Shown in pieces: positions 621 to 16,069 of a stretch of 20,902 bases of DNA. The position numbers were made by a program, and so were the translations under genes. The notes under the pieces were generated by a model. The model saw only the letters and a program-made list of their open reading frames with translations, searched no databases and was not told the origin of the DNA. The DNA lies in NCBI GenBank assembly GCA_030637025.1, contig DAOVVV010000040.1:1-20902 (forward strand), written 5' to 3'. Numbering within the stretch: position 1 is the stretch's first letter; every line of letters starts with the position of its first letter. This DNA comes from JAGLHV01 sp023143305 [NCBI: Clostridia bacterium] (GTDB lineage: Bacteria > CBDUZB01 > JAGLHV01).

Positions 621-682
621 CGGTGTAAAAGAAGTTCGGCAAAGCCGAATTTGGATGGAGCGAAGCGTAGTCTTTTACACCG
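621..682. repeat. Nested perfect palindrome (palindromic element 2)
   Basis: CGGTGTAAAAGA (621-632) and TCTTTTACACCG (671-682) are a perfect 12-base inverted repeat. Inside it lies a second perfect hairpin, TTCGGC AAA GCCGAA (635-649), followed by a GGAGCGAAGCG stretch. It ends 17 bases past the stop codon of the 700-1332 gene. A structured RNA, a miniature mobile element or a bidirectional terminator are all possible; the nested design favours a REP/MITE-type element. The GCAAAGC loop motif is shared with the element at 409-481. Confidence 0.6.
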
Positions 683-699
683 TGTTATCTGCTGTACTC

Positions 700-1332
700 C
701 TACATACAAGATTTTATACCTTCTCCACTTGACATATACTTCCAAATGCTATGGTCGAGTACTGATTTATTAATCCCCATTTGTTCCGCAGATTTGTTTA
801 CGATTTCCCTTGCTTCTGAGTAGCTAATCCTATCTCTCTCAATACCAGCCCTATTGAGAAATTTAATTAGATGGCGATCCACGGCACTGGTTGGAATATC
901 ACAGAGTATTTTGAAGTAGTCAGCAGTTTTGTCTCCTATACCTTTGAGATCTTTCAGTCTTACTATGTTTGCCTCATTTTCAAGCCAAGTCTTTAAATCT
1001 ACCTCGGTTTCTATTCCTTCTTCAGCGAAAAAACGAGCAATTATCAAAACACGATTTGGTTTTTCTGGGTCATTCCAGTTTAATAATTCTCTTGGACCTA
1101 TCCTCTCCAAGAGCTTGAGAAATCCTGTTGTTGTCTTAGCCTCTGAATAACTATGTCTTAACTCTTGGACACGGGGACTAACAACTGTTTCCCATTTGAT
1201 TCCTGCTTGGAGTATTGCATCCGTGACCGTTGCCCCCATGTGGTGATATGGGATGTCCGGCTCAATGATTTTGAAGTCTGAAAGAGATTTAATGTAATTT
1301 ATAAGTAATTTTACCTTCTTTTCAATAGTCAT
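700..1332 (-). CDS. HhH-GPD-type DNA glycosylase/AP-lyase-like protein, no FeS cluster
   Basis: The 210-residue product has the helix-hairpin-helix signature LKGIGDKTA (residues 129-137) followed by VDRH (151-154). In endonuclease III-type base-excision enzymes the lysine of G-x-G-x-K-T-A forms the Schiff base and the later aspartate activates it; K135 and D152 occupy these places with nearly the usual spacing. The C-terminal four-cysteine iron-sulfur loop of EndoIII/MutY is absent, since the protein ends 58 residues after D152 with only one cysteine there. It should act on damaged DNA in the cytoplasm, though the substrate lesion cannot be told. The ATG at 1332 has a GGAAGGA Shine-Dalgarno. 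Codon use (frequent GAG, AAG, CTC, AGG) differs from the neighbours, and the gene stands alone between repeats, suggesting acquisition. The family call is firm; the exact function is not. Confidence 0.7.
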   Translation of the reverse strand: MTIEKKVKLLINYIKSLSDFKIIEPDIPYHHMGATVTDAILQAGIKWETVVSPRVQELRHSYSEAKTTTGFLKLLERIGPRELLNWNDPEKPNRVLIIARFFAEEGIETEVDLKTWLENEANIVRLKDLKGIGDKTADYFKILCDIPTSAVDRHLIKFLNRAGIERDRISYSEAREIVNKSAEQMGINKSVLDHSIWKYMSSGEGIKSCM

Positions 1333-1384
1333 TTTTCATCCTTCCTTATTGGAACATTGCAGATAACTATCTGTTATCTTTTGT

Positions 1385-1417
1385 CTATGGACTATCGACT
1401 GTGGACTATGGACTGTC
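1385..1417. repeat. Heptameric tandem repeat, about 4.7 copies
   Basis: Successive seven-base units CTATGGA, CTATCGA, CTGTGGA, CTATGGA and a partial CTGTC run head to tail between the glycosylase gene and ahcY. The units are too short and lack spacers, so this is not a CRISPR. It looks like a slippage-type simple repeat. Confidence 0.7.
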
Positions 1418-1443
1418 TTTATCCGTTGTCTTTTGTTTTTTCA

Positions 1444-1473
1444 AACCAATCTAAACTAATCTAAACCAATTCA
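1444..1473. repeat. Ten-base tandem repeat, three copies
   Basis: Three decamers AACCAATCTA, AACTAATCTA and AACCAATTCA lie head to tail, 26 bases after the heptamer tract and just before the end of ahcY at 1493. Nothing else is visible in the 160-base spacer. Confidence 0.65.
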
Positions 1474-1492
1474 ACTGTCTTTTAACCGTCTT

Positions 1493-2770
<1,278 letters not shown>

Positions 2771-2790
2771 TTAACCTTTGTCCTTGACTT

Positions 2791-3960
2791 TTATATTCCT
2801 GCCTTTTTTCGTAAAATCTCCGCTTTATCTGTTTTTTCCCAGCTAAACTCTTCCTCTGTTCTTCCAAAATGGCCGTAAGCCGCTGTTTTCAAATAAATAG
2901 GCCTACGCAAATTAAGTTCGTTTATTATCCCTTGCGGGGTCAAAGAAAAATTTTCTTTGACTAATTCAGCTATCTTCTTTTCAGATATTTTAGCTGTTTC
3001 TTCCGTATCAATCATAACTGAAACAGGATCGGCTACACCGATAGCATAGGCTAATTGAATATTACATTTATCCGCCATTCCCGATGCTACAACATTCTTA
3101 GCAATATATCTGGCCATATAAGAAGCAGAACGGTCTACTTTAGTGGGATCCTTCCCGGAAAAAGCCCCTCCGCCATGCGGAGCCATTCCCCCATAAGTAT
3201 CTACAATAATCTTTCTTCCGGTCATTCCTGTATCTGATTGTGGGCCGCCAACTACAAACTTTCCGGTAGGATTTATAAAATATTTAGTTTCTTTATCCAA
3301 AAACCGTTGCTCAATAATGGGATTAATCACTGCCTCAATAATTTCATCTGTAGCTTTTTGAGTTATTTTTTTTCCTGTAGAATCCAGTATCTCTTCTGTG
3401 TGCTGCGATGATATTACAACTGTATCCACCCGATGGGGAACTCCGTCTTTATATTCTACCGTTACCTGTGATTTCCCATCCGGGCCTAAATATTTGAGGA
3501 TTTCCTCTTTCCTCACTTGTGCCAATCTTTTGGTCAATCGATGTGCCAACATAATCGGTAAAGGCATAAGTTCTTCGGTTTCCCTGCAGGCATAACCAAT
3601 CATCAAACCCTGGTCTCCTGCCCCCCCGATATCTACCCCCTGAGAAATATCCGGTGATTGACTTCCGATAGCATTAAGAACAGCACAGGTTTCATAATTA
3701 AAACCATATTTAGCGCTTGTATATCCTATGTCCTTCAAAAGTTGTCGCACAAGTTTTTGAATATCCACATAGCTGGTAGTCGTAATTTCTCCGCCTACCA
3801 CCACTAACCCAATGGTTATGAAAGTTTCACAAGCAACCCGCCCTTTAGAATCCTGCCCGATAATTGCATCTAAAACCGCATCTGAAATCTGATCACAAAC
3901 CTTATCCGGATGCCCTTCTGTTACAGACTCGGATGTAAATAAAAAATCTTTTTTCGCCAT
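2791..3960 (-). CDS. metK: S-adenosylmethionine synthetase (methionine adenosyltransferase)
   Basis: The 389-residue product makes S-adenosylmethionine from methionine and ATP in the cytoplasm. All family landmarks are present: GHPDK (16-20), the GAGDQG nucleotide loop (113-118), and the long glycine-rich [16 protein letters not shown] stretch (263-278) with active-site lysines and arginine. Length is normal (about 385-400). The ATG at 3960 has an AAGGAGG Shine-Dalgarno. Upstream, the 224-base spacer to argD is filled mostly by a palindromic repeat element and I see no SAM riboswitch in it. The gene is followed after 41 bases by ahcY. Confidence 0.97.
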
Positions 3961-6198: not shown

Positions 6199-8409
6199 TT
6201 ATTGTCCTTTTATGTTTCTATATCCCTTTATTTCGTACGTTTTCCCACAGGTAGTAATTTCCAAAGCACCCATTTCCTTTGTGCTATATATTTTTAAAGT
6301 TTCCTTTTTTTCCGAACTTATTTGTTCCAGCTGCCTTAAAAAATTTGTCTTCGCTTTTCCCGAAAAGGTCATTATAGCACATTCGGGAAAAATTTCCCAC
6401 AAAAAATTTTCTAAAATCCCCCCCCCTTTTTGATCAGGAATTTGAAGGACTTTAACTTTTAAGTCATAATTATTAACTATCCTTTTTTGTGCCCTTTTCC
6501 CTATATCCCCGGGAAAAAGAATACTAAAATCTTTGTAAACCAAATATAATACTAAACTGTCGTTTCTGTTGTTTCTAAAAAACTCAGGATTTAAAACCTG
6601 AAAATCAAGTTCTTTTTCTTTTTTTATCCAATCCCCTCTTTTGGCCTTTCTAATTTTAAAAGGAATATTCTCCCGGGCAAGTTTACTATTAAAAATTATT
6701 TCCTTTATTTTGAAATTATTTAATATTATACCTAATCCTTTTGTATGAACAGGATTATCTCGCATAATTACAACAGTATTTATTTTTTTTACCCTTTTAC
6801 TTAAAAGAAATGGTACCAGAACCCTTTCCGCTACTTTAGATGTTCCGCCCACACCTATCAGCATATTTTTACCGTCCGGGAATTCTAAAAAGATACTGTT
6901 CCCTTTTCTAAGTGCCAAAAAAGTAATCTTTAAATCATCAGAACGAAAAAATGAACTATTAATAATAAATATTAAACTTACAATAATTCCTCCGGAAACA
7001 AAAAAGTACCGGACTTTCAAAAAAGAGCTGTTTTTATAAAACTTACTTACTATTCTATAATTTATTAAACAAAATATTATTAAATAAAAAACAACTAAAA
7101 ATAAAATAGAAGGAGTGCTTACTTTAACTGAAGCAAAAGGAAAAGAAGCAAAAAATTTAGCTTCTTTGATTAAACAAAGTATACATAAACTATTTATTTT
7201 TCCAATTAAACCAGCACAAAAACCACTTACCAGAGAAATAATACAAGTCGAAAATCCCAGTGTTACAATAATTCCCACCAAAGGAACCACAAAAAGATTA
7301 GTTAAAGGAGCTATCAATGAAATTTGATTAAAATAATAAGCAATCAAAGGACTTACCATAATCTGGGCACTCAGGGAAATAGCTAATGCATTACGTACCC
7401 ATGAAGGTAAAAAAGGCAACGACTTTCGAATTAAACCGGATAAATATAATATGCCTATAGTCGCTAAATACGAAAATTGAAATCCAATATTAAAAAGGGA
7501 CTGAGGATTAATTAAAAGAATAATCAAGGCAGAAAGATAAAGGCTGTGATGCAAATTTTTGTCCCGTCCCAAAAAATACGCACCTAATCCCAAAGTAGCC
7601 ATAAGAAAAGCCCGAACTGCTGAAGGACGTGCCCCTGTTATCTGGACGTAAAAAAAAATCATTATAATGGTTAAAAGATAAGACCTTCTTTTAGGAATAC
7701 CCAACAAGAAAAAAACTCCTAAAAAAATAAAAAGCACCAATCCTACATGAAGACCGGAAACCGCCAGAGTATGTACTATTCCACTGGCTATAAAATCCCG
7801 ATAAACCTGCTGGGGAAGAATATTGCGTTCCCCCAACATTATTCCGGATAAAACCCGCCAACAGCTCTTTTCTGTATATTGTTCGATTCTTTTTTTCATT
7901 TCCTGCCGTAAAAAAAAGAAAGGTGTCCATGAAAAATTTCTTTTTCCTGAAAGAATCAATTTTATATTGCTGCAACCATTTACCGTTAGTAAAGAATAAA
8001 TTTTTTTTCTGGATAAATACTTTTTATAATCAAACTCGCCGGGATTAAGTGCAGAAGCAGGAAAATTAAGAGACCCGGTTATTTTTACTTCATCTCCCCG
8101 CTTAAAATTAAACCGGGAAGAATAACAATTAACTAATATTTTACCCGAGACATTGCCTTTTTTATTTATTATCTTTTTTACTTTAAATATAAAAACAGTT
8201 TTATTTTTTTTCTTTTCAGGCTGACTGGCAATTACACCTTCTAAGCTTATTTTTCCGGAAACAAAATGAGAAATGTCTTTTTTAGGAACCTTGTTAAAAA
8301 ACCCTAAATAATCAGCTGTGATTATCGATAAGAGATAAAAAGCAGTTAAAATTAAAATTATTCTTCGTGGATACAAAATAAATTTACCAATTTCTTTTTT
8401 AATTCTCAC
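6199..8409 (-). CDS. comEC: ComEC/Rec2 DNA-uptake channel with degenerate metallo-beta-lactamase domain
   Basis: The 736-residue inner-membrane protein matches ComEC, the channel passing single-stranded DNA into the cytoplasm during transformation. Order: an N-terminal membrane and OB-like DUF4131 region with LNPGEFDYKKYL (121-132), the Competence domain with IVHTLAVSGLHVGLV (211-225) and GARPSAVRAF (259-268) plus many membrane spans to about residue 485, then a C-terminal MBL-like domain (493-736). In that domain the usual metal-ligand motifs are replaced: DVGQGD by ALRKGN (499-504), THxDxDH by MRDNPVH (549-555), HHGS by PDQKG (658-662). Only the PGDIG near 633-637 and the preceding NDSLVL (616-621) remain. 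The likely start is a GTG at 8409 with AAGG abutting it, an atypical ribosome site. It ends directly at argB. Confidence 0.9.
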   Translation of the reverse strand: MRIKKEIGKFILYPRRIILILTAFYLLSIITADYLGFFNKVPKKDISHFVSGKISLEGVIASQPEKKKNKTVFIFKVKKIINKKGNVSGKILVNCYSSRFNFKRGDEVKITGSLNFPASALNPGEFDYKKYLSRKKIYSLLTVNGCSNIKLILSGKRNFSWTPFFFLRQEMKKRIEQYTEKSCWRVLSGIMLGERNILPQQVYRDFIASGIVHTLAVSGLHVGLVLFIFLGVFFLLGIPKRRSYLLTIIMIFFYVQITGARPSAVRAFLMATLGLGAYFLGRDKNLHHSLYLSALIILLINPQSLFNIGFQFSYLATIGILYLSGLIRKSLPFLPSWVRNALAISLSAQIMVSPLIAYYFNQISLIAPLTNLFVVPLVGIIVTLGFSTCIISLVSGFCAGLIGKINSLCILCLIKEAKFFASFPFASVKVSTPSILFLVVFYLIIFCLINYRIVSKFYKNSSFLKVRYFFVSGGIIVSLIFIINSSFFRSDDLKITFLALRKGNSIFLEFPDGKNMLIGVGGTSKVAERVLVPFLLSKRVKKINTVVIMRDNPVHTKGLGIILNNFKIKEIIFNSKLARENIPFKIRKAKRGDWIKKEKELDFQVLNPEFFRNNRNDSLVLYLVYKDFSILFPGDIGKRAQKRIVNNYDLKVKVLQIPDQKGGGILENFLWEIFPECAIMTFSGKAKTNFLRQLEQISSEKKETLKIYSTKEMGALEITTCGKTYEIKGYRNIKGQ

Positions 8410-8504: not shown

Positions 8505-9065
8505 TTATTCTAATTTAAAATTTTCCTTCCCTTCTTTCAACCTATTTATATTTTCTTCTATTTCTTCCTGTAGCATTATAATTTTTTTATTGTCTATTTT
8601 TTCTTCGGTTAAAAATTCATTTAATATTTTCATTTTTTCGTCTAAGCTATCCATTAAATTTTTTTCTTTTTTTGACTGTTCTCTTAAAACATCTACTAAC
8701 CGGTTGATTTTACCTACAAATTCATTTAATTCATCAGTTTTTCTTATTTGAATATTACGGCTAAAATCTCCCTGCCGAATTAACCCAACAACTTTCTCTA
8801 TACGACTGATTGGTCCGGCAATACGATGAGACAAAAGAAAACATAAAATAGCCTCAAATATTAATAAAACCCCTATTTTCCCTGCTACCAATTTTCCTGT
8901 TTTTACAATCAGTTCTTCAAAGAAAAATTCTCCTTTTAACAATTCTATCCACAAAGTAAAAAACACACTTAAACTTACAAACAAAGTAATTACCAACATT
9001 AAAAGAAAAAGAAATACTGCATACCGAAATTGAAAACTACTTTGATTTATATATTTTTTCCTCAT
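8505..9065 (-). CDS. Stand-alone HAMP-domain membrane protein with coiled-coil tail
   Basis: The 186-residue product has two membrane spans (about 14-38 and 60-80) enclosing a short extracytoplasmic segment, a HAMP signal relay (79-130) with its conserved proline in RIAGPISRIEKV and the second helix around KTDELNEFVGKINRLV, and then a charged coiled coil (130-180). There is no MA (chemoreceptor signalling), histidine-kinase, GGDEF or other output domain, so it cannot signal alone in any standard way. It lies 42 bases after the 7-TM gene and in the same run as the CheR-TPR gene, suggesting a chemosensory or methylation-linked role. Chemoreceptors are methylated in the helices beyond HAMP; whether this tail is a methyl acceptor is speculation. 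Family (HAMP) is clear, function unknown. Confidence 0.7.
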   Translation of the reverse strand: MRKKYINQSSFQFRYAVFLFLLMLVITLFVSLSVFFTLWIELLKGEFFFEELIVKTGKLVAGKIGVLLIFEAILCFLLSHRIAGPISRIEKVVGLIRQGDFSRNIQIRKTDELNEFVGKINRLVDVLREQSKKEKNLMDSLDEKMKILNEFLTEEKIDNKKIIMLQEEIEENINRLKEGKENFKLE

Positions 9066-9107
9066 TATTAGATACTATCCTTACTTATTGTTTATTTATT
9101 TTCTTCT

Positions 9108-9896
9108 TTATATCTTTACTTCTTTCTTTAAAGAAATTTTCAAGCTGATTATTTCAAAAATACCTGCCATCAATGCTCCTGCATAATATATCCACCACTG
9201 ATTGGGAATATTCCAAAAAATAAAAGTAAACCCGCAAAAAAGCATAGAAAGCCCAAAACTGAAAACAGCAAAAGATTGAAACAACAATTTTTTAGGCATA
9301 TTATCATATATTGTATCTTTAGGAAAAGTGACCGAACGCCGTAAACTAATAGTACCAGCTATAATCATCATCATTACCGGACTTAAAAAACGAATTACAA
9401 ATAAAATAGGCATAAGCCTTCTATTCGGATTAGTTTCATGAAACCATATCCCATCATAAACTACATATTTACCTATTTTAAAAATTTCTTTAGATCCGCC
9501 AACAGCAAAAACATTAATAACAGCAAACAAAACTGCTAACAACAAACAGCCTGAAAATATTATGATAATAAATTTTTTAGTGATTTTTTCATGCCCTAAC
9601 GAAAAACTGAGTAATCCTATAAATACCGCTGGAGAAAAAAGTCCTATCATAAGAAATTCACGAATATTATTGATTATAAGAGGCACAGGATGCGGACCTA
9701 ACAGAATTTGTAAAGGGCGCGTCATTAAAAAAACTCCAAAAAAAATAAACCCCCAGAATGCTCCCTTATAAGTAACTCGTCCGGTAACCAATAATCGCAT
9801 AGGAGCAATATATTTAATATACCCGGCCATAAAAAAATATACCATCCCGGCTAAAACAGGTACAATAATATTAGCAATAAATAATATTTTATTCAT
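9108..9896 (-). CDS. Seven-TM integral membrane protein of unknown function
   Basis: I do not recognise the family. The 262-residue product shows about seven hydrophobic spans (near 5-27, 45-60, 80-100, 108-130, 160-182, 205-228, 234-253), a layout like the 7-TM sensor modules that precede signalling domains, but no cytoplasmic output domain follows. An extracytoplasmic-sized loop (about 132-160) contains WFHETNPNRR. Its ATG overlaps the cheR stop codon by four bases (ATGA), so its translation is tied to the CheR-like methyltransferase, and a HAMP protein gene follows 42 bases later. The context suggests a membrane sensing or anchoring partner in a three-gene signalling module. Confidence 0.65.
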   Translation of the reverse strand: MNKILFIANIIVPVLAGMVYFFMAGYIKYIAPMRLLVTGRVTYKGAFWGFIFFGVFLMTRPLQILLGPHPVPLIINNIREFLMIGLFSPAVFIGLLSFSLGHEKITKKFIIIIFSGCLLLAVLFAVINVFAVGGSKEIFKIGKYVVYDGIWFHETNPNRRLMPILFVIRFLSPVMMMIIAGTISLRRSVTFPKDTIYDNMPKKLLFQSFAVFSFGLSMLFCGFTFIFWNIPNQWWIYYAGALMAGIFEIISLKISLKKEVKI

Positions 9897-11362
9897 TTTT
9901 TTTCATTCACATTCTTTTTAGATGTTTTTATTTTATCAATATTCTGCCGGCATGTTTGAATTAACAATCTAGCTGTAATTCCTTCTGAAAATTCCATTAT
10001 TTTTTCCGGGGAAGATTTTATTAGAACTTTTATTGCATTAATATACTCTTTTATAGCTTCTTCATCTTTACCTTGCAGCTGATAAATGCGTGCCATATTA
10101 AAATAAGCCAAACTAAAATCTCTATCAATATAAATAACTTTTCTAAATTCACTGATTGCCTCATGGGACTGCCCCATTTTATCATAAACAACTCCCAGAA
10201 GAAAATGAGCAGCAAGAAATAAAGGAACAATTTGTATTGCCCATTGACAAGACTCTATCGCTTCAACAAATTGATGAGAATTAGCATGAATTTTTCCTGC
10301 TAAAAAATGCGCTTCAGCCATTTGAGAATCTATTTTAAGAACTTCTGTAACTTTTCCTAAAGCTTGAGAAAACTCTCCCTCTTCAAATAATTCTACGGCT
10401 TTGCTGTATAAATCCCTGGGTAAAGTAGCTTCATTAAAAGATTTCGCCTCTGCCTTTTTTTCCGAAACAACAGTTTCTTCTTTGTTGTTTACAATTTTTT
10501 CTATTTGCGGTAAATCCTGCCTTCTTTTTTTATATATGAAAATGTCTTTCCATTTAAATGGCACAAACTCAGAAGATATATGTTGCAAAGTTTCTGCATA
10601 TCCAATAAAAAAATAACCACTATTTTTAAGGCTCCTATAAAAATTATGTATAACCCTTACAATTGATTCTAATTTAAAATAAATAGTAACATTACGGCAA
10701 AAAATAATATCCCATCCCTCCATTTTAGCTAAAGGGTATGGTTCTTTAATCAAGTTGAAATATTCAAATTTCACCATTTTTTTTACTTTATCTTTTAGTT
10801 GAAATTTATTTTTATCTATCTGTATAAAATATTTATTTTTTATTTTTTCACTGACTAATTTCAAAGCATACGCAGAATAAATTCCCTTTTTTGCTTTGCT
10901 TAATGCTTTTTTGCTTACATCTGTGGCTAAAATTTCAATATTCCAATCGTTATAAAATCCAAGCGCCTCCAAAATAGCTATAGCTACAGTATAAGGCTCT
11001 TCCCCTGTAGAACATCCTGCACTCCAGATTTTAATACCCTCCCCATATACCATCTTTTCCGCTATTGATGTAGAAAGAATGTATTCTTTTAAAAATTTAA
11101 AATGCCCGGGCCCCCTAAAGAAGTAAGTCTCATTTATGGTTATTAAACTCAGTAATTCTTTAAATTCTTCTTCTCCCAAGGCATCACATTTAAGAAAAGA
11201 ATAATACTCGTAATAATTTCTAAATCCTTTAGCGCTTATTCTGAAAAGAAGGCTTATTCTTAAGGAATCCTCCCTGTTTCTATCCAAAAAAATACCACTG
11301 TTTTCCAGGATAAAATTTTGAAATAATTTAAATTCTTGTTCCGTTAAATCCGGATTAATCAT
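9893..11362 (-). CDS. cheR: CheR-type protein-glutamate methyltransferase with C-terminal TPR repeats
   Basis: The 489-residue cytoplasmic protein has a CheR N-terminal helical part ending in NETYFFR (77-83), then the SAM-binding fold with SAGCSTGEEPYTVA (114-127), the acidic ATD (146-148) and IIFCRNVTIYF (219-229). CheR proteins methylate glutamates of chemoreceptors using S-adenosylmethionine. After a linker rich in K and E (about 281-315) there are about four TPR-like repeats (around 319-450; for example AEAHFLAGKIHA and LAYFNMARIYQLQGKDEEAI), as in CheR-TPR proteins of alternative chemosensory systems such as Myxococcus FrzF. No cheA, cheW, cheB or full chemoreceptor is in the window. The start at 11362 has no clear Shine-Dalgarno. 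It overlaps the next gene by four bases. Confidence 0.9.
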   Translation of the reverse strand: MINPDLTEQEFKLFQNFILENSGIFLDRNREDSLRISLLFRISAKGFRNYYEYYSFLKCDALGEEEFKELLSLITINETYFFRGPGHFKFLKEYILSTSIAEKMVYGEGIKIWSAGCSTGEEPYTVAIAILEALGFYNDWNIEILATDVSKKALSKAKKGIYSAYALKLVSEKIKNKYFIQIDKNKFQLKDKVKKMVKFEYFNLIKEPYPLAKMEGWDIIFCRNVTIYFKLESIVRVIHNFYRSLKNSGYFFIGYAETLQHISSEFVPFKWKDIFIYKKRRQDLPQIEKIVNNKEETVVSEKKAEAKSFNEATLPRDLYSKAVELFEEGEFSQALGKVTEVLKIDSQMAEAHFLAGKIHANSHQFVEAIESCQWAIQIVPLFLAAHFLLGVVYDKMGQSHEAISEFRKVIYIDRDFSLAYFNMARIYQLQGKDEEAIKEYINAIKVLIKSSPEKIMEFSEGITARLLIQTCRQNIDKIKTSKKNVNEKK

Positions 11363-12765: not shown

Positions 12766-14634
12766 ATGGCCAATTTTAAAAATATAAAATTACTCCGTCA
12801 ACTCAGCGCTTTAGATGTATTCTGTATTTCTACCGGGGCAATGATTAGTTCCGGTTTATTTATACTTCCCGGAATAATTTACGCTAAAATCGGCCCGGCA
12901 GTAATCTTAGCTTATATTTTCGCCGGGCTGTTTATTCTTCCGGCGTTATTTGCTAAAATAGAATTAGCCACTGCAATGCCTAAAGCCGGCGGCGATTATT
13001 TTTTTATCGAACGCAGTATGGGTTCAGCAGCCGGCACAATCGGAGGATTTGCCAGTTGGTTTTCGCTTACCCTTAAAAGCGCTTTTTCGTTAGTAGGCAT
13101 AGGCGTACTTATGACCCTGATTAATCCCGGAATTACTGAAGGGCAAATTAAATTCATTGCTATACTTTTTTGTCTGCTTTTTATGATTTTTAATTTAACC
13201 AGCGTTAAACTTACCGGTAGAATTCAAATTTTTCTTGTTTTCCTGCTTATCGGGGCCCTATCTCTTTATATTCTTCGAGGTGTAATGTTAATTAATGTCC
13301 ACAGTTATACCCCATTTATGCCTTTTGGTAAACGTTCATTGTTTCTGGCAATCGGCATGGTTTTTATCTCTTTTGGTGGATTAACCAAGGCAGCCAGTAT
13401 TGCCGAAGAAGTCAAAAATCCATCTAAAAACATCCCTTACGGAATGATTTTATCTTTTTTAGTAGTATTGTTTCTTTATGGGTTAACTATTTTCGTAACA
13501 GTAGGGTTGCTTAACCAGGATGAATTAACCCATTCCCTTACTCCTATTTCTACCGGCGGTTACAAAATATTTGGTACTTTTGGCAGTATAATTATGTCTT
13601 TTGCCGGAATTCTGGCTTTTGTCTCTACAGCCAATGCCGGGATATTATCCGCTTCCCGCTTTCCCCTGGCAATGAGCCGTGACCAGCTTTTACCGGATTT
13701 TTTTGCTAAAATAAATAAGCGCTTTAATACCCCTCATTTTTCCATAATATTTACCGGAATTTTTATGATGGCTTTTATCCTTTTTTTGAATCTGGAAAAT
13801 TTGGTAAAAGTGGCTTCTACTTTAAAAATCATCTTGTTTATATTTGTCATCCTGGCTTCCATTATTATGCATGAAAGTAGGATATTAAATTATAAACCGG
13901 CTTTTTCCTCTCCACTTTACCCGTGGTTACCGATAGCGGGTATTATCTCTTACGGTTTTTTCTTATATGAAATGGGCACTATAGCCCTTTTATCGACAAG
14001 TGTATTCATTCTATTCAGTATGCTCTGGTATAAAATTTATCTTAAAGGAACGGCTATGCGAAAATCTGCCTTAGTACATATTGTAGAGCGGGTCACGGCC
14101 AAAGAAATAGCCGGGAACTCATTGGCATCTGAGTTGCGCGAAATATTAAAGGAACGGGATGAAATAGTTGAAGACAGATTTGACGAACTGGTAAAAAAGT
14201 GTGAAATAATTGATATCGGTAAACAAATTACCCTTATAGAATTTTTCACTCTGGTGTCTAATAAATTGGCTAAACAATTAAATATTAATGCCAAACAATT
14301 ACTTGATTCCCTTATTACCAGGGAAGAAGAGTCCACTACCGAAGTGAGGCCGGGATTAGCCATTCCCCATATTAGTATCGATGGTACTCATAAATTTAAA
14401 TTACTTATAGTCCGGTGTGAAGCCGGTATTAATTTTTCCAATGACTTACCTCCCGTTTATGTTGCTTTTATTTTAGTCGGCTCACCGGATGAAAGAAATT
14501 TTCACTTACGGGCATTATCTGCCATCGCCCAAATTACCCAGGATACGGACTTTGATAAAAACTGGCTGAGAGCTAAAAACATTGAAGAGTTACGTGATAT
14601 CCTTCTCCTGGCCAAAAGACTCCGTAATAAATAA
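12766..14634 (+). CDS. APC-family amino-acid permease fused to a PTS EIIA (type 2) domain
   Basis: Residues 1-425 form an amino-acid/polyamine/organocation transporter with about 12 membrane spans and the helix-1 signature STGAMISSGLF (22-32), plus GGDYFF (75-80) and EEVKNPSKNIP (214-224). A cytoplasmic linker (about 430-482) leads into a complete fructose/mannitol-type PTS EIIA domain (about 483-622): REEESTT (519-525), GLAIPH with the phospho-acceptor histidine H535, and HLRALSAIAQI (580-590). In the phosphotransferase system EIIA takes phosphate from HPr, so transport could be gated by PTS phosphorylation or energy state. The domains are read directly; the gating role is inference. No HPr or EI lies in the window. 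Substrate unknown. The ATG has no visible Shine-Dalgarno. Normal APC permeases are about 430-500 residues. Confidence 0.88.
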   Translation: MANFKNIKLLRQLSALDVFCISTGAMISSGLFILPGIIYAKIGPAVILAYIFAGLFILPALFAKIELATAMPKAGGDYFFIERSMGSAAGTIGGFASWFSLTLKSAFSLVGIGVLMTLINPGITEGQIKFIAILFCLLFMIFNLTSVKLTGRIQIFLVFLLIGALSLYILRGVMLINVHSYTPFMPFGKRSLFLAIGMVFISFGGLTKAASIAEEVKNPSKNIPYGMILSFLVVLFLYGLTIFVTVGLLNQDELTHSLTPISTGGYKIFGTFGSIIMSFAGILAFVSTANAGILSASRFPLAMSRDQLLPDFFAKINKRFNTPHFSIIFTGIFMMAFILFLNLENLVKVASTLKIILFIFVILASIIMHESRILNYKPAFSSPLYPWLPIAGIISYGFFLYEMGTIALLSTSVFILFSMLWYKIYLKGTAMRKSALVHIVERVTAKEIAGNSLASELREILKERDEIVEDRFDELVKKCEIIDIGKQITLIEFFTLVSNKLAKQLNINAKQLLDSLITREEESTTEVRPGLAIPHISIDGTHKFKLLIVRCEAGINFSNDLPPVYVAFILVGSPDERNFHLRALSAIAQITQDTDFDKNWLRAKNIEELRDILLLAKRLRNK

Positions 14635-14710: not shown

Positions 14711-14742
14711 ATACAACTTATATGTTGTATACTAAATTTTTT
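14711..14742 (+). terminator. Possible weak terminator after the permease gene
   Basis: ATACAAC TTATAT GTTGTAT (14711-14730) is a perfect seven-base stem, followed after six bases by TTTTTT. It stands between the convergent permease and pilin-like genes. The stem is AT-rich, so termination strength is doubtful. Confidence 0.35.
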
Positions 14743-15799
14743 CTTCTCTCCATGCAAACATTTCCACTCTATCAATACCGGGAACTGTTCCGATACCAAT
14801 TAAATTTGGGTCATGTTTTATATCTGAAGTTCCGTCACCGGTATAACTATGAACATTAATCGCACCCTTACCCCAGGAAGTTCCTACTACATTACAATCA
14901 TATTTAGGAGCATAAACAGCTGCATAAATATCACTGGTCCCATGCAACTTTATATTCCCGCTTTCCCCTGTTCCATAAAGGAAAAAAGTAGTAGCATCGG
15001 TTGCTGTATTTACAAAACCAGTTCCTCCGGCATCAATATCACCCGAACAATATAAATATACCCCAGGTCCACCTGCTACTGTAGTTAATGTTATTTTAGC
15101 ATTTCCCCCTATATTTATAGAACTACAGGTATAGGTACCGGGAGCTACAATAAAATTAGCATTTCCAAGTAAATTAATGGCACCTAAATCTATAGCTCCT
15201 ACCGGAGCAACCGGTAAGGGAAAATTAGCTGTTGCGTAATCTTTTTCTGTAACTACTCCGGTAACATGAACCGCACCATTTACCGTATCACTGGTAATTA
15301 CATCCCCGGTTATATTACAGGTATCGAGAAGATCAATTCCTCCATCCCCTGCTGAAATAGCATAATCATACGGAGAATGTGTAGGAAAGGGTATTCTGTT
15401 AACTAAAGCTACAATTTTTCTTTTTTCTCCCGGGGCAACCATATTCGGCACATAACCAATGGTTTCTATTCCATAACGATTAACCGGCAAAAGATTGCTA
15501 TCAAACATACAGCCGGGAGTAGAAACATTAATTGTATATTGACCTTTGGATAAATTCTGTAATGCCCCGGGACCTGTATAATTTGAATTATTCACTATTT
15601 CACTCATTGCCCGTTGTACCCCGGCATCAGCTAATTGAATTGCTCTCGTTGATAGTACCGTTTTCACTGTTGTTTTCGTTTCAAAATCAGCTAAACGGCT
15701 CAAACCCATTCCTACAGGAATTAAAACTAAAATCATTAAAGTCACTAAAGGTAAAGCTATTCCCCTCTCTGTTAGTAAACATCTATTATTTTTATCCAT
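14732..15799 (-). CDS. PilX-like pilin/pilus-assembly protein (minor pseudopilin type)
   Basis: The 355-residue product begins with a class III-like prepilin leader and a hydrophobic helix: ERG then IALPLVTLMILVLIPVGMGL (14-33), so cleavage after G13 by prepilin peptidase is likely. The Glu5 of major pilins is missing (position +5 is Leu), as in PilX/GspK-type minor pilins. The helix continues with TRAIQLADAGVQRAMSEI (51-68), typical of PilX N-terminal domains. The rest is a secreted, Gly/Asn/Thr-rich beta region of the kind found in long PilX-like proteins (DUF7305-like; family number from memory) with six scattered cysteines, ending GIDRVEMFAWRE. No other pilin genes are adjacent. The ATG has an AAAGGAGG ribosome site, and the leader contains a c-di-GMP-I riboswitch and terminator. 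Confidence 0.8.
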   Translation of the reverse strand: MDKNNRCLLTERGIALPLVTLMILVLIPVGMGLSRLADFETKTTVKTVLSTRAIQLADAGVQRAMSEIVNNSNYTGPGALQNLSKGQYTINVSTPGCMFDSNLLPVNRYGIETIGYVPNMVAPGEKRKIVALVNRIPFPTHSPYDYAISAGDGGIDLLDTCNITGDVITSDTVNGAVHVTGVVTEKDYATANFPLPVAPVGAIDLGAINLLGNANFIVAPGTYTCSSINIGGNAKITLTTVAGGPGVYLYCSGDIDAGGTGFVNTATDATTFFLYGTGESGNIKLHGTSDIYAAVYAPKYDCNVVGTSWGKGAINVHSYTGDGTSDIKHDPNLIGIGTVPGIDRVEMFAWREEKI

Positions 15800-15850
15800 T
15801 TTTCTCTCCTCCTTTTATTATTAATATTTGGTAAACTGCTTATTATCTCC

Positions 15851-15897
15851 GAAAATTAAAAACCGGATTAATCCATTTTGCTACGGATTATCCGGTT
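15851..15897 (-). terminator. Intrinsic terminator, expression platform of the riboswitch
   Basis: On the reverse strand AACCGGATAATCC (15897-15885) pairs with GGATTAATCCGGTT (15874-15861) across a ten-base loop and runs into TTTTTAATTTT. It lies between the aptamer and the pilin-like gene. The 5' arm AACCGG can alternatively pair with the CCGGGTT of the aptamer 3' side, which would be an antiterminator. Confidence 0.85.
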
Positions 15898-15914
15898 AAC
15901 TTTTATTTTATGTT

Positions 15915-15999
15915 CTTCGGCAACCCGGCTGTCCGCCATTACTTAGTGACGAACCCGTAGCTTTGCGTCCTATCCTTACGGATAGTTTGCCTTTATCAA
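15915..15999 (-). promoter_or_regulatory. c-di-GMP-I (GEMM-I) riboswitch aptamer
   Basis: The reverse strand shows the GEMM-I core in order: GGCAAAC, a hairpin CTATCC GTAA GGATAG capped by a GNRA loop, GGACGCAAAGC, a second hairpin region with CTACGGG, then AGCCGGGTTGCCGA closing the GGCAA/TTGCC stem. By comparison with the Vibrio Vc2 aptamer, the ligand-contacting G20 (here base 15990), A47 and C92 are all conserved; the G at position 20 favours c-di-GMP over the cGAMP-binding variant. It should sense cyclic di-GMP and control the pilin-like gene at 14732-15799 through the terminator at 15851-15897. Confidence 0.93.
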
Positions 16000-16024
16000 A
16001 ATATAATTTCTGCTCTCGTTCTTA

Positions 16025-16053
16025 AGTATATCACAGGTTTACTGATTTATCGA
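16025..16053 (-). promoter_or_regulatory. Candidate promoter of the riboswitch/pilin transcript
   Basis: On the reverse strand TCGATA (16048-16053) and TATACT (16025-16030) are 17 bases apart. A start near 16018 would place the first transcribed bases about 20 ahead of the aptamer, as expected for a riboswitch leader. Confidence 0.6.
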
Positions 16054-16069
16054 TGTGATTTTGGTCACT
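16054..16069. promoter_or_regulatory. CRP/FNR-family-like operator
   Basis: TGTGA TTTTGG TCACT matches the CRP consensus TGTGA-N6-TCACA at 9 of 10 defined bases. Its centre lies about 43 bases upstream of the predicted transcription start, close to the -41.5 position of class II CRP activation. No regulator gene is in the window, so this is a sequence match only. Confidence 0.4.

What the first reader, a model, noticed from the sequence alone, without database searches (positions are those of the whole stretch)
14732..15999. Single PilX-like pilin gene under a c-di-GMP-I riboswitch
Seen: a near-complete GEMM-I aptamer with the c-di-GMP-selective G at the position-20 equivalent, an intrinsic terminator, then a well-initiated PilX-like gene with no other pilin genes beside it. 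Known: c-di-GMP often controls type IV pili, and GEMM riboswitches precede pilin genes in some bacteria. Inferred: the terminator 5' arm (AACCGG) can pair with the aptamer 3' strand (CCGGGTT), so ligand binding would release the terminator, an OFF switch. A lone, riboswitch-controlled minor pilin with a large beta-rich domain suggests a surface adhesin that can be exchanged at the pilus tip.
Basis: partly seen in the sequence, partly recalled or inferred. Interest (0 to 1): 0.72.

Follow-up and report, generated by a model that had tools for sequence, protein, structure and literature searches.

The report
c-di-GMP OFF-switch on a tip pilin
An RNA sensor for the bacterial signal molecule c-di-GMP sits in front of a gene for a large, probably tip-located pilus protein and most likely shuts it off when the signal is high; in the same genus sister genes carry similar sensors, some apparently wired the opposite way.

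Summary
Window 15915-16000 (-) is a class-I c-di-GMP aptamer (72.5 bits, E 1e-15) with G20, A47 and C92, followed by an intrinsic terminator and a 355-aa PilX-like gene (14732-15799). The OFF direction is supported by comparing 17 leaders (the window and 16 from three relatives): terminator and antiterminator both covary. The protein is predicted to be a ComZ-like modular pilin: an ice-binding-type beta-solenoid inserted into a pilin sheet, suited to a pilus tip. "Lone" is true at this locus, but in the genus the gene belongs to a paralogue family inside a regulon of 12-19 class-I riboswitches per genome. In two genomes an inferred ON-type riboswitch with a long PilX-like gene lies just upstream of an OFF-type one with a short PilX-like gene. 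One syntenic orthologue has a decayed riboswitch. Ligand binding and termination are untested. Aptamer class and both switch directions are already known; platform detail, target and mixed-sign pilin regulon look new.

The parts
16055..16068 (.). GTGA-N6-TCAC palindrome (CRP/FNR-box-like), centre about -43.5 from the inferred start site
   Evidence: only match in the window, 0.06 expected, 5 of 100 shuffles had one; function not tested; the box name is recalled
16025..16033 (-). extended -10 promoter TGATATACT, start site inferred near 16018
   Evidence: promoter scan, with TG (that scan found 4 sites against 2.6 in shuffles, so it is weak alone); TGnTATnnT within 60 nt upstream of the aptamer in 26 of 44 leaders versus 2.1 (at most 7) in mononucleotide shuffles
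15915..16000 (-). class-I c-di-GMP riboswitch aptamer
   Evidence: RF03167 72.5 bits, E 1e-15; G20 15991, A47 15964, C92 15920
15952..15961 (-). P3 5' strand GCUACGGGUU: pairs with the aptamer 3' strand in the ligand form, with 15880-15889 in the antiterminator
   Evidence: 10-bp duplex, 0 of 500 shuffles as good; covariation
15922..15928 (-). aptamer 3' strand CCGGGUU (P3 3' strand)
   Evidence: alignment; P3 98.2% paired over 17 leaders
15892..15897 (-).
   Evidence: 93.8% pairable, no compensatory change
15880..15889 (-). AAUCCGUAGC: switching strand (3' part of the terminator 5' arm; antiterminator 3' strand)
15858..15874 (-). terminator 3' arm GGAUUAAUCCGGUU and U-tract
   Evidence: terminator outer stem 96.6% paired, 8 cells changed on both sides, 0/500 shuffles
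15808..15813 (-). Shine-Dalgarno AGGAGG
   Evidence: sequence
14732..15799 (-). PilX-like modular pilin, 355 aa: helix 15-70, pilin sheet, inserted beta-solenoid 141-336, closing strand 344-354
   Evidence: DUF7305 48.5 bits; PilX_N 22.0 bits, below cut-off; AF2 mean pLDDT 80.5, pTM 0.58; FfIBP-type Z 20.5, ComZ Z 13.4
12766..14634 (+). convergent amino-acid permease with PTS EIIA-like C-terminal domain; synteny marker
   Evidence: next to the same pilX in G003 C346 and G002 C174
6199..8409 (-). ComEC-like competence gene in the same window
   Evidence: PF03772 7.7e-65

Best explanation
A transcriptional OFF riboswitch for c-di-GMP controls a ComZ-like modular, probably tip-located, type IV pilin. 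Shown by sequence comparison: the aptamer has the canonical c-di-GMP contacts, and the leader can form three competing, conserved helices: P3 of the aptamer, an antiterminator and a terminator. Inferred: with little c-di-GMP, the strand AAUCCGUAGC captures the P3 5' strand as it is transcribed (perhaps helped by AACCGG on the aptamer 3' strand), so the terminator cannot form and the pilin is made. With c-di-GMP bound, P3 is locked, AACCGGAUAAUCC pairs with GGAUUAAUCCGGUU and transcription stops. The protein would be built onto pili made by machinery encoded elsewhere, carrying a beta-solenoid that binds DNA or a surface. In the genus this is one copy of a paralogue family, and other riboswitches of the same class appear to turn a second type of PilX-like protein on.
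For: Aptamer hit with G20/A47/C92; these as contact residues: PMC4744006, PMC3764141 (passages). Antiterminator: 92.4% of 119 cells paired over 17 leaders, 9 cells changed on both sides; 0/500 shuffles as high on pairing, changed cells and covariation score. One covarying column (A-U 14, G-C 3) is the bulged P3 residue, unpaired in the aptamer, so P3 cannot explain it. Terminator: 96.6% paired, 8 cells changed on both sides, 0/500. Cut before the terminator 3' arm, the window leader's free fold contains the antiterminator and is 5.8 kcal/mol better than aptamer and leader folded apart. GGDEF domains: 8, 9 and 7 in the three relatives. Protein model and ComZ/FfIBP matches; ComZ architecture PMC6561018 (passages). 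T2SSE-type ATPases (PF00437): 6, 7 and 7 matches.
Against: No binding or transcription data. The whole leader folds as aptamer plus terminator even without ligand, so the switch must be kinetic; and a joint fold can hardly be worse than separate folds, so the energy figure only shows that inter-strand pairing helps. The 17 leaders are related paralogues chosen by inspection, and the number of pairs with both-side changes is not above shuffles (3, reached in 105/500). Leader by leader, the best duplex of the P3 5' strand beats shuffles at p < 0.05 in 10 of 21 (one of them, G003_C2, through another strand) and not in 11, one of these 11 cut too early by my script. In G002_C191 and G002_C169a the truncated fold did not use the P3 5' strand; G002_C72a and G003_C346 pair only partly. 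The syntenic orthologue in G003 has lost the aptamer 3' strand and a good U-tract. PilX_N is below its curated cut-off here and in all relatives. No T4P assembly genes were seen in the window.
Confidence: 0.72

Rival explanations
1. ON switch: the aptamer 3' strand (AGCCGGGUUG) pairs directly with the terminator 3' arm (UAAUCCGGUU), and ligand binding prevents termination, as in sibling leaders that lack the extra strand.
For: This pairing is possible in 95.3% of cells over the 17 leaders. In about 14 sibling leaders it is the only terminator I recognised.
Against: No compensatory changes for it in the window-type leaders (0 cells), whereas the intervening strand covaries with both the P3 5' strand and the terminator arm; the intervening hairpin is in the minimum-energy fold.
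Confidence: 0.12
2. The riboswitch is a relic: an inherited leader at a duplicated orphan pilin copy that no longer regulates anything useful.
For: The syntenic copy in G003 is degraded (39.1 bits RF01051; terminator and U-tract broken); no partner pilins at the locus.
Against: The window copy has contact residues, terminator, extended -10 and Shine-Dalgarno intact and scores higher with RF03167 (72.5 by cmscan) than any of the 43 sibling leaders with that model (best 68.9 by the genome search); the ORF is intact and 85% identical to the G002 copy.
Confidence: 0.12
3. The ligand is another cyclic dinucleotide such as 3',3'-cGAMP.
For: 4 of 44 leaders have A at position 20. That A20 goes with cGAMP preference is recalled; PMC9262584 section 20 says the equivalent nucleotide guides selectivity, and PMC9481103 reports a pocket change with improved c-AMP-GMP binding beside c-di-GMP aptamers (passages).
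Against: The window has G20. Of 24 GGDEF matches in the three relatives, the 15 that fitted my motif end GD (10) or GN (5), none GS; 9 did not fit and were not judged (the Hypr serine signature is recalled).
Confidence: 0.04

Closest known systems
Cd1 class-I riboswitch of Clostridioides difficile (flagellar operon)
   Same: class-I c-di-GMP aptamer, transcriptional OFF switch, terminator hairpin that can coexist with the aptamer and competes with an antiterminator (PMC9262584: abstract, first parts of introduction and results, section 20)
   Different: Cd1's antiterminator takes the aptamer 3' strand including the ligand-pairing C87; here the covarying partner is the P3 5' strand; the target is a pilin, not flagella
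pilM riboswitch of Geobacter metallireducens
   Same: same aptamer family, controls pilus genes by termination (PMC9262584)
   Different: cGAMP ligand and ON sign; resembles the siblings whose aptamer 3' strand is the terminator arm, not the window
C. difficile c-di-GMP network: 12 class-I and 4 class-II riboswitches
   Same: many riboswitches, inverse control of surface structures by one signal (PMC11477304 passages)
   Different: there class I is OFF and class II is ON (one class-II element works by splicing); here one class appears to carry both signs, on paralogous pilins
ComZ of Thermus thermophilus (6qvi)
   Same: pilin-type domain with an FfIBP-like beta-solenoid inserted into its sheet, proposed tip DNA receptor (PMC6561018 passages); model Z 13.4 over 283 residues, rmsd 12.0
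   Different: shorter solenoid (about 195 versus about 380 residues), no partner pilin beside the window gene, DNA binding untested, riboswitch control
DUF3494-type ice-binding proteins (FfIBP)
   Same: solenoid fold, Z 20.5, rmsd 2.2 over 179 residues
   Different: 14-20% identity, no Pfam ice-binding hit, no long lateral helix in the model; fold only, no claim of ice binding

Membership tests
class-I c-di-GMP (GEMM-I) riboswitch | covariance-model match above the gathering score | tested here: met
   RF03167 72.5 bits vs 59; of the 43 sibling leaders 42 are above the RF01051 cut-off; no RF01051 score for the window was printed
class-I c-di-GMP (GEMM-I) riboswitch | ligand contacts G20, A47, C92 | tested here: met
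   15991 G, 15964 A, 15920 C by the alignment; contact roles from PMC4744006 and PMC3764141 passages
class-I c-di-GMP (GEMM-I) riboswitch | binds c-di-GMP | not testable with these tools
   needs in-line probing or ITC
c-di-GMP-I-GGC sub-model (RF03167) | G at the A47 equivalent, as in the model consensus | tested here: not met
   consensus GACGCG versus GACGCA in the window; that GGC names pocket positions 20/47/92 is my inference, not from a call
cGAMP riboswitch (GEMM-Ib) | A at position 20 | tested here: not met
   G in the window; A in 4 of 44 leaders; the rule itself is recalled
transcriptional OFF riboswitch | terminator compatible with the folded aptamer, and a mutually exclusive antiterminator that disrupts it | tested here: met
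transcriptional OFF riboswitch | ligand raises termination | not testable with these tools
   needs single-round transcription
PilX-type pilin (PF14341) | PilX_N above curated cut-off | tested here: not met
   22.0 vs 25.5 bits, E 1.7e-4, profile 1-50 of 51; also 0 of 6 searched genome handles (three distinct genomes) over the cut-off; a long N-terminal helix is in the model, hence 'PilX-like'
DUF7305 (PF23981) | curated cut-off | tested here: met
   48.5 vs 27 bits
ComZ-like modular pilin | beta-solenoid inserted in the pilin beta-sheet | tested here: met
   predicted model only
ComZ-like modular pilin | partner pilin beside the gene, as PilA2 beside ComZ | tested here: not met
   none in the window; N_methyl pilins do flank paralogues in G001 C323, G002 C72, G003 C34, G002 C191
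ComZ-like modular pilin | DNA binding / tip location | not testable with these tools
   needs EMSA and microscopy
DUF3494 ice-binding protein | solenoid fold | tested here: met
   Z 20.5, predicted model
DUF3494 ice-binding protein | sequence-family match | tested here: not met
   no ice-binding Pfam family at E 0.1; the alignment profile reaches ice-binding chains only at E 0.08-0.19

The most novel reading that the evidence does not exclude
A c-di-GMP-driven exchange of pilus-tip modules: one riboswitch class, with two opposite expression platforms, turns one family of modular pilins (short, solenoid-bearing, DUF7305) off and another (long, about 580-595 aa) on, from neighbouring genes, while no aptamer was found on the contigs that carry the paired PilB/PilT-like ATPase genes (G001 C24, G002 C83, G003 C57). 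The sign would have been set by gaining or losing a copy of the aptamer 3' strand between aptamer and terminator; leaders with a second 3' strand look like intermediates. A20 variants in a few leaders could add a second dinucleotide signal.
Probability: 0.35. Interest if true: 0.75.

Novelty: new variant of a known kind. Interest (0 to 1): 0.5.

Why it matters
c-di-GMP often promotes pili. Here it would remove one specialised tip protein and, through sister switches of the same aptamer class, supply another. That would make a single RNA class a selector of what the pilus binds (DNA, surface, partner) in an uncultured bacterial lineage, testable with short RNAs in vitro. The leaders also offer a natural series for how an ON riboswitch becomes an OFF one.

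Tried and rejected
The window's own assembly is not held, so its other riboswitches are unknown; relatives G001-G003 were used. The aptamer-enforced folds used a structure shifted by one base and were discarded; the free folds of that call stand, and one search replaces the rest. Automatic terminator classification mis-set some leaders (first U-run not the terminator, e.g. C11, C112a, C169a, C69, C9, C86), so the lists (21 window-type, 20 direct-type, 3 without terminator) were set by inspection; the G002_C191 region was cut too early and its null result is void. Of the 21, C333, C142, C183 and C48 seem to use a different switching strand and were left out of the 17-row covariation alignment, so 17 is a chosen subset. 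No covariation test was made for the direct-type leaders: 5 of the 19 examined have 11-13 contiguous base pairs between aptamer 3' strand and terminator arm and the other 14 have 5-7 (two of these with the strand clipped by my script), and G002_C86 has no U-tract there. Searches for a cGAMP-type GGDEF found none among the 15 of 24 readable. The AF2 model of the long pilin is unusable (mean pLDDT 36), so its head is unknown. Sliding the antiterminator partner by 1-3 columns drops pairing to 22-53%. VIA matches below Z 8 are not used as evidence. NCBIfam gave nothing for the window protein. An ice-binding function was considered and set aside for lack of sequence support and because the closest solved pilin (ComZ) shares the fold without it.

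Full report
What is there. On the minus strand the window holds an extended -10 promoter (16033-16025), a full-length class-I c-di-GMP aptamer (16000-15915; 72.5 bits, E 1e-15), a terminator hairpin ending in TTTTT (15898-15858), a Shine-Dalgarno AGGAGG and a 355-aa PilX-like ORF (15799-14732). The leader is more stable than its shuffles (z -4.16, 0 of 200). Upstream lies a DNA-alkylation-repair gene in the same direction, downstream a convergent permease; of 15 other ORFs scanned with Pfam none is a pilin.

Ligand pocket. By the alignment the positions equivalent to Vc2 G20, A47 and C92 are G, A and C, the contacts named for c-di-GMP in PMC4744006 and PMC3764141 (passages read). Rfam's best model is c-di-GMP-I-GGC, whose consensus has G where the window has A; I therefore describe the window as an ordinary class-I aptamer that happens to fit that model best. 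A search for papers naming the GGC or UAU sub-models listed three; in the passages read of one they are only named.

Relatives. The window's assembly is not held. The nearest held genome, G001, shares 32% of sampled 31-mers and a 99% identical permease; G002 and G003 are of the same genus. From identical matches I infer that they are the MAGs RS_2_16, CSMAG_496 and RS_13_36. They hold 12, 19 and 12 class-I aptamers (43 in all; contigs are fragmentary), whereas 14 of the 60 genomes searched, these three included, have any RF03167 match at E 0.001 (9 over the cut-off; most other positive genomes have 1-3, one has 8) and 0 of 14 control genomes do. With the window this gives 44 leaders. First genes or operons include PilX-like pilins, an apparent Tad-type cluster (by eye; Flp_Fap 17.1 bits, below its 32.2 cut-off), a subtilase with a type IX sorting domain, a stand-alone MshE-type c-di-GMP-binding domain (NF053729, 49.9 bits vs 38) and small proteins that look secreted; several first genes match no family. 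GGDEF domains number 8, 9 and 7, and a PilZ protein follows a short pilX in G003 C34.

Switch direction. Leaders fall by inspection into 21 with a separate terminator hairpin, 20 in which an aptamer 3' strand is the terminator's 5' arm, and 3 without a terminator. The window is of the first kind. For 17 leaders of that kind (4 were set aside because they seem to use another switching strand) I counted pairs. Antiterminator, P3 5' strand with CCGUAGC: 92.4% of 119 cells paired, 9 changed on both sides, covariation score 0.270 against 0.172 (0/500), slid versions 22-53%. Changes include CUGCGG/CCGCAG and CUACAG/CUGUAG. The column at the bulged P3 residue covaries (A-U 14, G-C 3) although it is unpaired in the aptamer. 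Terminator: 96.6% paired, 8 cells changed on both sides, 0/500. P3: 98.2% paired, no excess covariation. Direct aptamer-terminator pair: 95.3%, none. These are related paralogues, so counts are not independent events, and the number of pairs with both-side change in the antiterminator is not above shuffles (105/500). Tested leader by leader against shuffles of the downstream region, the P3 5' strand finds a better-than-chance partner (p < 0.05) in 10 of 21 window-type leaders, the window most strongly (0 of 500); 11 do not, one because my script cut its region too early. Cut before the terminator arm, the free fold is 5.8 kcal/mol better than aptamer and leader folded apart in the window and 2.8-12.5 better in all 17, through the P3 5' strand in 15; joint folds can hardly be worse, so this is weak support. 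Complete leaders mostly fold as aptamer plus terminator. Together this is what an OFF switch needs, with a mainly P3-directed antiterminator.

Direct-type siblings. In about 14 leaders, for example G001 C323c (GCCGGGUUACCGA with UUGGUAAUCCGGU, 13 bp), the only terminator I recognised uses the aptamer 3' strand, so ligand should prevent it: an ON switch, as for pilM (PMC9262584). The pairing is long and unbroken in 5 of 19 examined and interrupted in the rest; I made no covariation test of it. Six of the 20 (C31b, C336b, C178b, C69, C9, C32) hold two successive 3' strands (by eye; folds) and their sign is uncertain. A at position 20 occurs in 4 of 44.

The pilin. AF2 with 17 sequences gives mean pLDDT 80.5 and pTM 0.58: helix 15-70, a small sheet, a beta-solenoid 141-336 and a last strand 344-354. 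Solenoid matches are FfIBP-type ice-binding proteins (Z 20.5, rmsd 2.2, 179 residues), and the whole chain matches ComZ (Z 13.4 over 283 residues, rmsd 12.0, probably from domain placement) and simple pilins or pseudopilins at low Z. ComZ was described with this plan, its solenoid closest to FfIBP, and argued to sit at the pilus tip and bind DNA (PMC6561018 passages). Modular pilins, likely tip-exposed, are widespread (PMC8179133 passages). The window also encodes ComEC. I infer a tip receptor or adhesin; DNA as ligand is only a suggestion.

Lone or not. The convergent permease marks the same lone pilX in G003 C346 and G002 C174; in G001 the contig ends inside the permease (two bases after the match). 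The tree joins the window and G002 C174 (100/100) apart from the cluster copies. In G003 the lone copy's aptamer has lost its 3' strand (39.1 bits RF01051) and its U-tract is broken. In G001 C323 and G002 C72 a long PilX-like gene with a direct-type leader lies upstream (one small ORF between) of a short pilX with a window-type leader, with N_methyl pilins around; the short one in G002 C72 is truncated at 251 aa. Outside the genus, of 20 DUF7305 loci in 14 genomes, one (L132, an 887-aa protein, not pilin-like) has a class-I aptamer upstream; these loci reach only about 1.5 kb to each side of the match, so some leaders may lie outside.

Compared with what is known. [quoted passage not shown]) and inverse control by class-I OFF and class-II ON in C. 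difficile (PMC11477304 passages) are all in print. In my searches (listings, plus the passages cited) I saw no riboswitch on a ComZ-like pilin and no class-I riboswitches of both signs on paralogous pilins; the library is only part of the literature. Hence: new variant of a known kind.

Noticed in passing
L075 (G002 C183) 465-552, genes 673-3873: A class-I aptamer (75.4 bits RF01051) precedes a YhcG/PDC-S02-like nuclease gene and a 747-aa dCTP-deaminase-type defence gene (PADLOC dCTPase 1.4e-94). Sister leaders precede a 312-aa unknown with a PDC-S27 ATPase beyond it (L074), a 216-aa unknown with a TrwC relaxase-helicase beyond it (L076), and an ORF cut by the contig end (L063). c-di-GMP control of phage-defence or mobile genes would be unusual; one search listed no paper holding both 'c-di-GMP riboswitch' and either defence term among the 10 of 14 shown.
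   Followed up: partly
L055, L065, L079 (second aptamers), L070, L086, L090: Six leaders carry two successive copies of the aptamer 3' strand; the proximal or the distal copy could complete the aptamer, the distal one also being the terminator arm.
   Followed up: partly
L054, L056 (7260-7343), L069, L084: Four of 44 aptamers have A at position 20, the change linked (from recall) to cGAMP preference, in genomes where no Hypr-type GGDEF was recognised among the 15 of 24 readable.
   Followed up: partly
L084:3476-3724 and L069:529-777: A stand-alone 83-aa MshE-type c-di-GMP-binding domain (NF053729, tested for L084) is itself the first gene behind an A20 class-I riboswitch: an RNA sensor controlling a protein sensor.
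   Followed up: no
L054, L066, L078: Aptamer followed after two bases by the ATG of a subtilase gene (type IX secretion signal domain found in L066; ORF interrupted at 366 aa in L078), no terminator found and no Shine-Dalgarno seen: a translational platform seems likely.
   Followed up: no
upstream of the aptamers in L057, L060, L067, L068, L080, L085, L088; window 16055-16068: TGTGA-N6-TCACA-like palindromes (some with one mismatch) precede a family of leaders for small proteins that look secreted, and a similar one precedes the window promoter; a CRP/FNR-type activator may be layered on the riboswitch.
   Followed up: partly
window 8505-11362: CheR methyltransferase with TPRs, an unassigned membrane protein and a HAMP-like protein form an apparent operon that runs towards ComEC (6199-8409).
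   Followed up: no
L132 207-359: In an unrelated genome a class-I c-di-GMP aptamer (48.9 bits) precedes an 887-aa DUF7305 protein without a recognisable pilin N-terminus.
   Followed up: no
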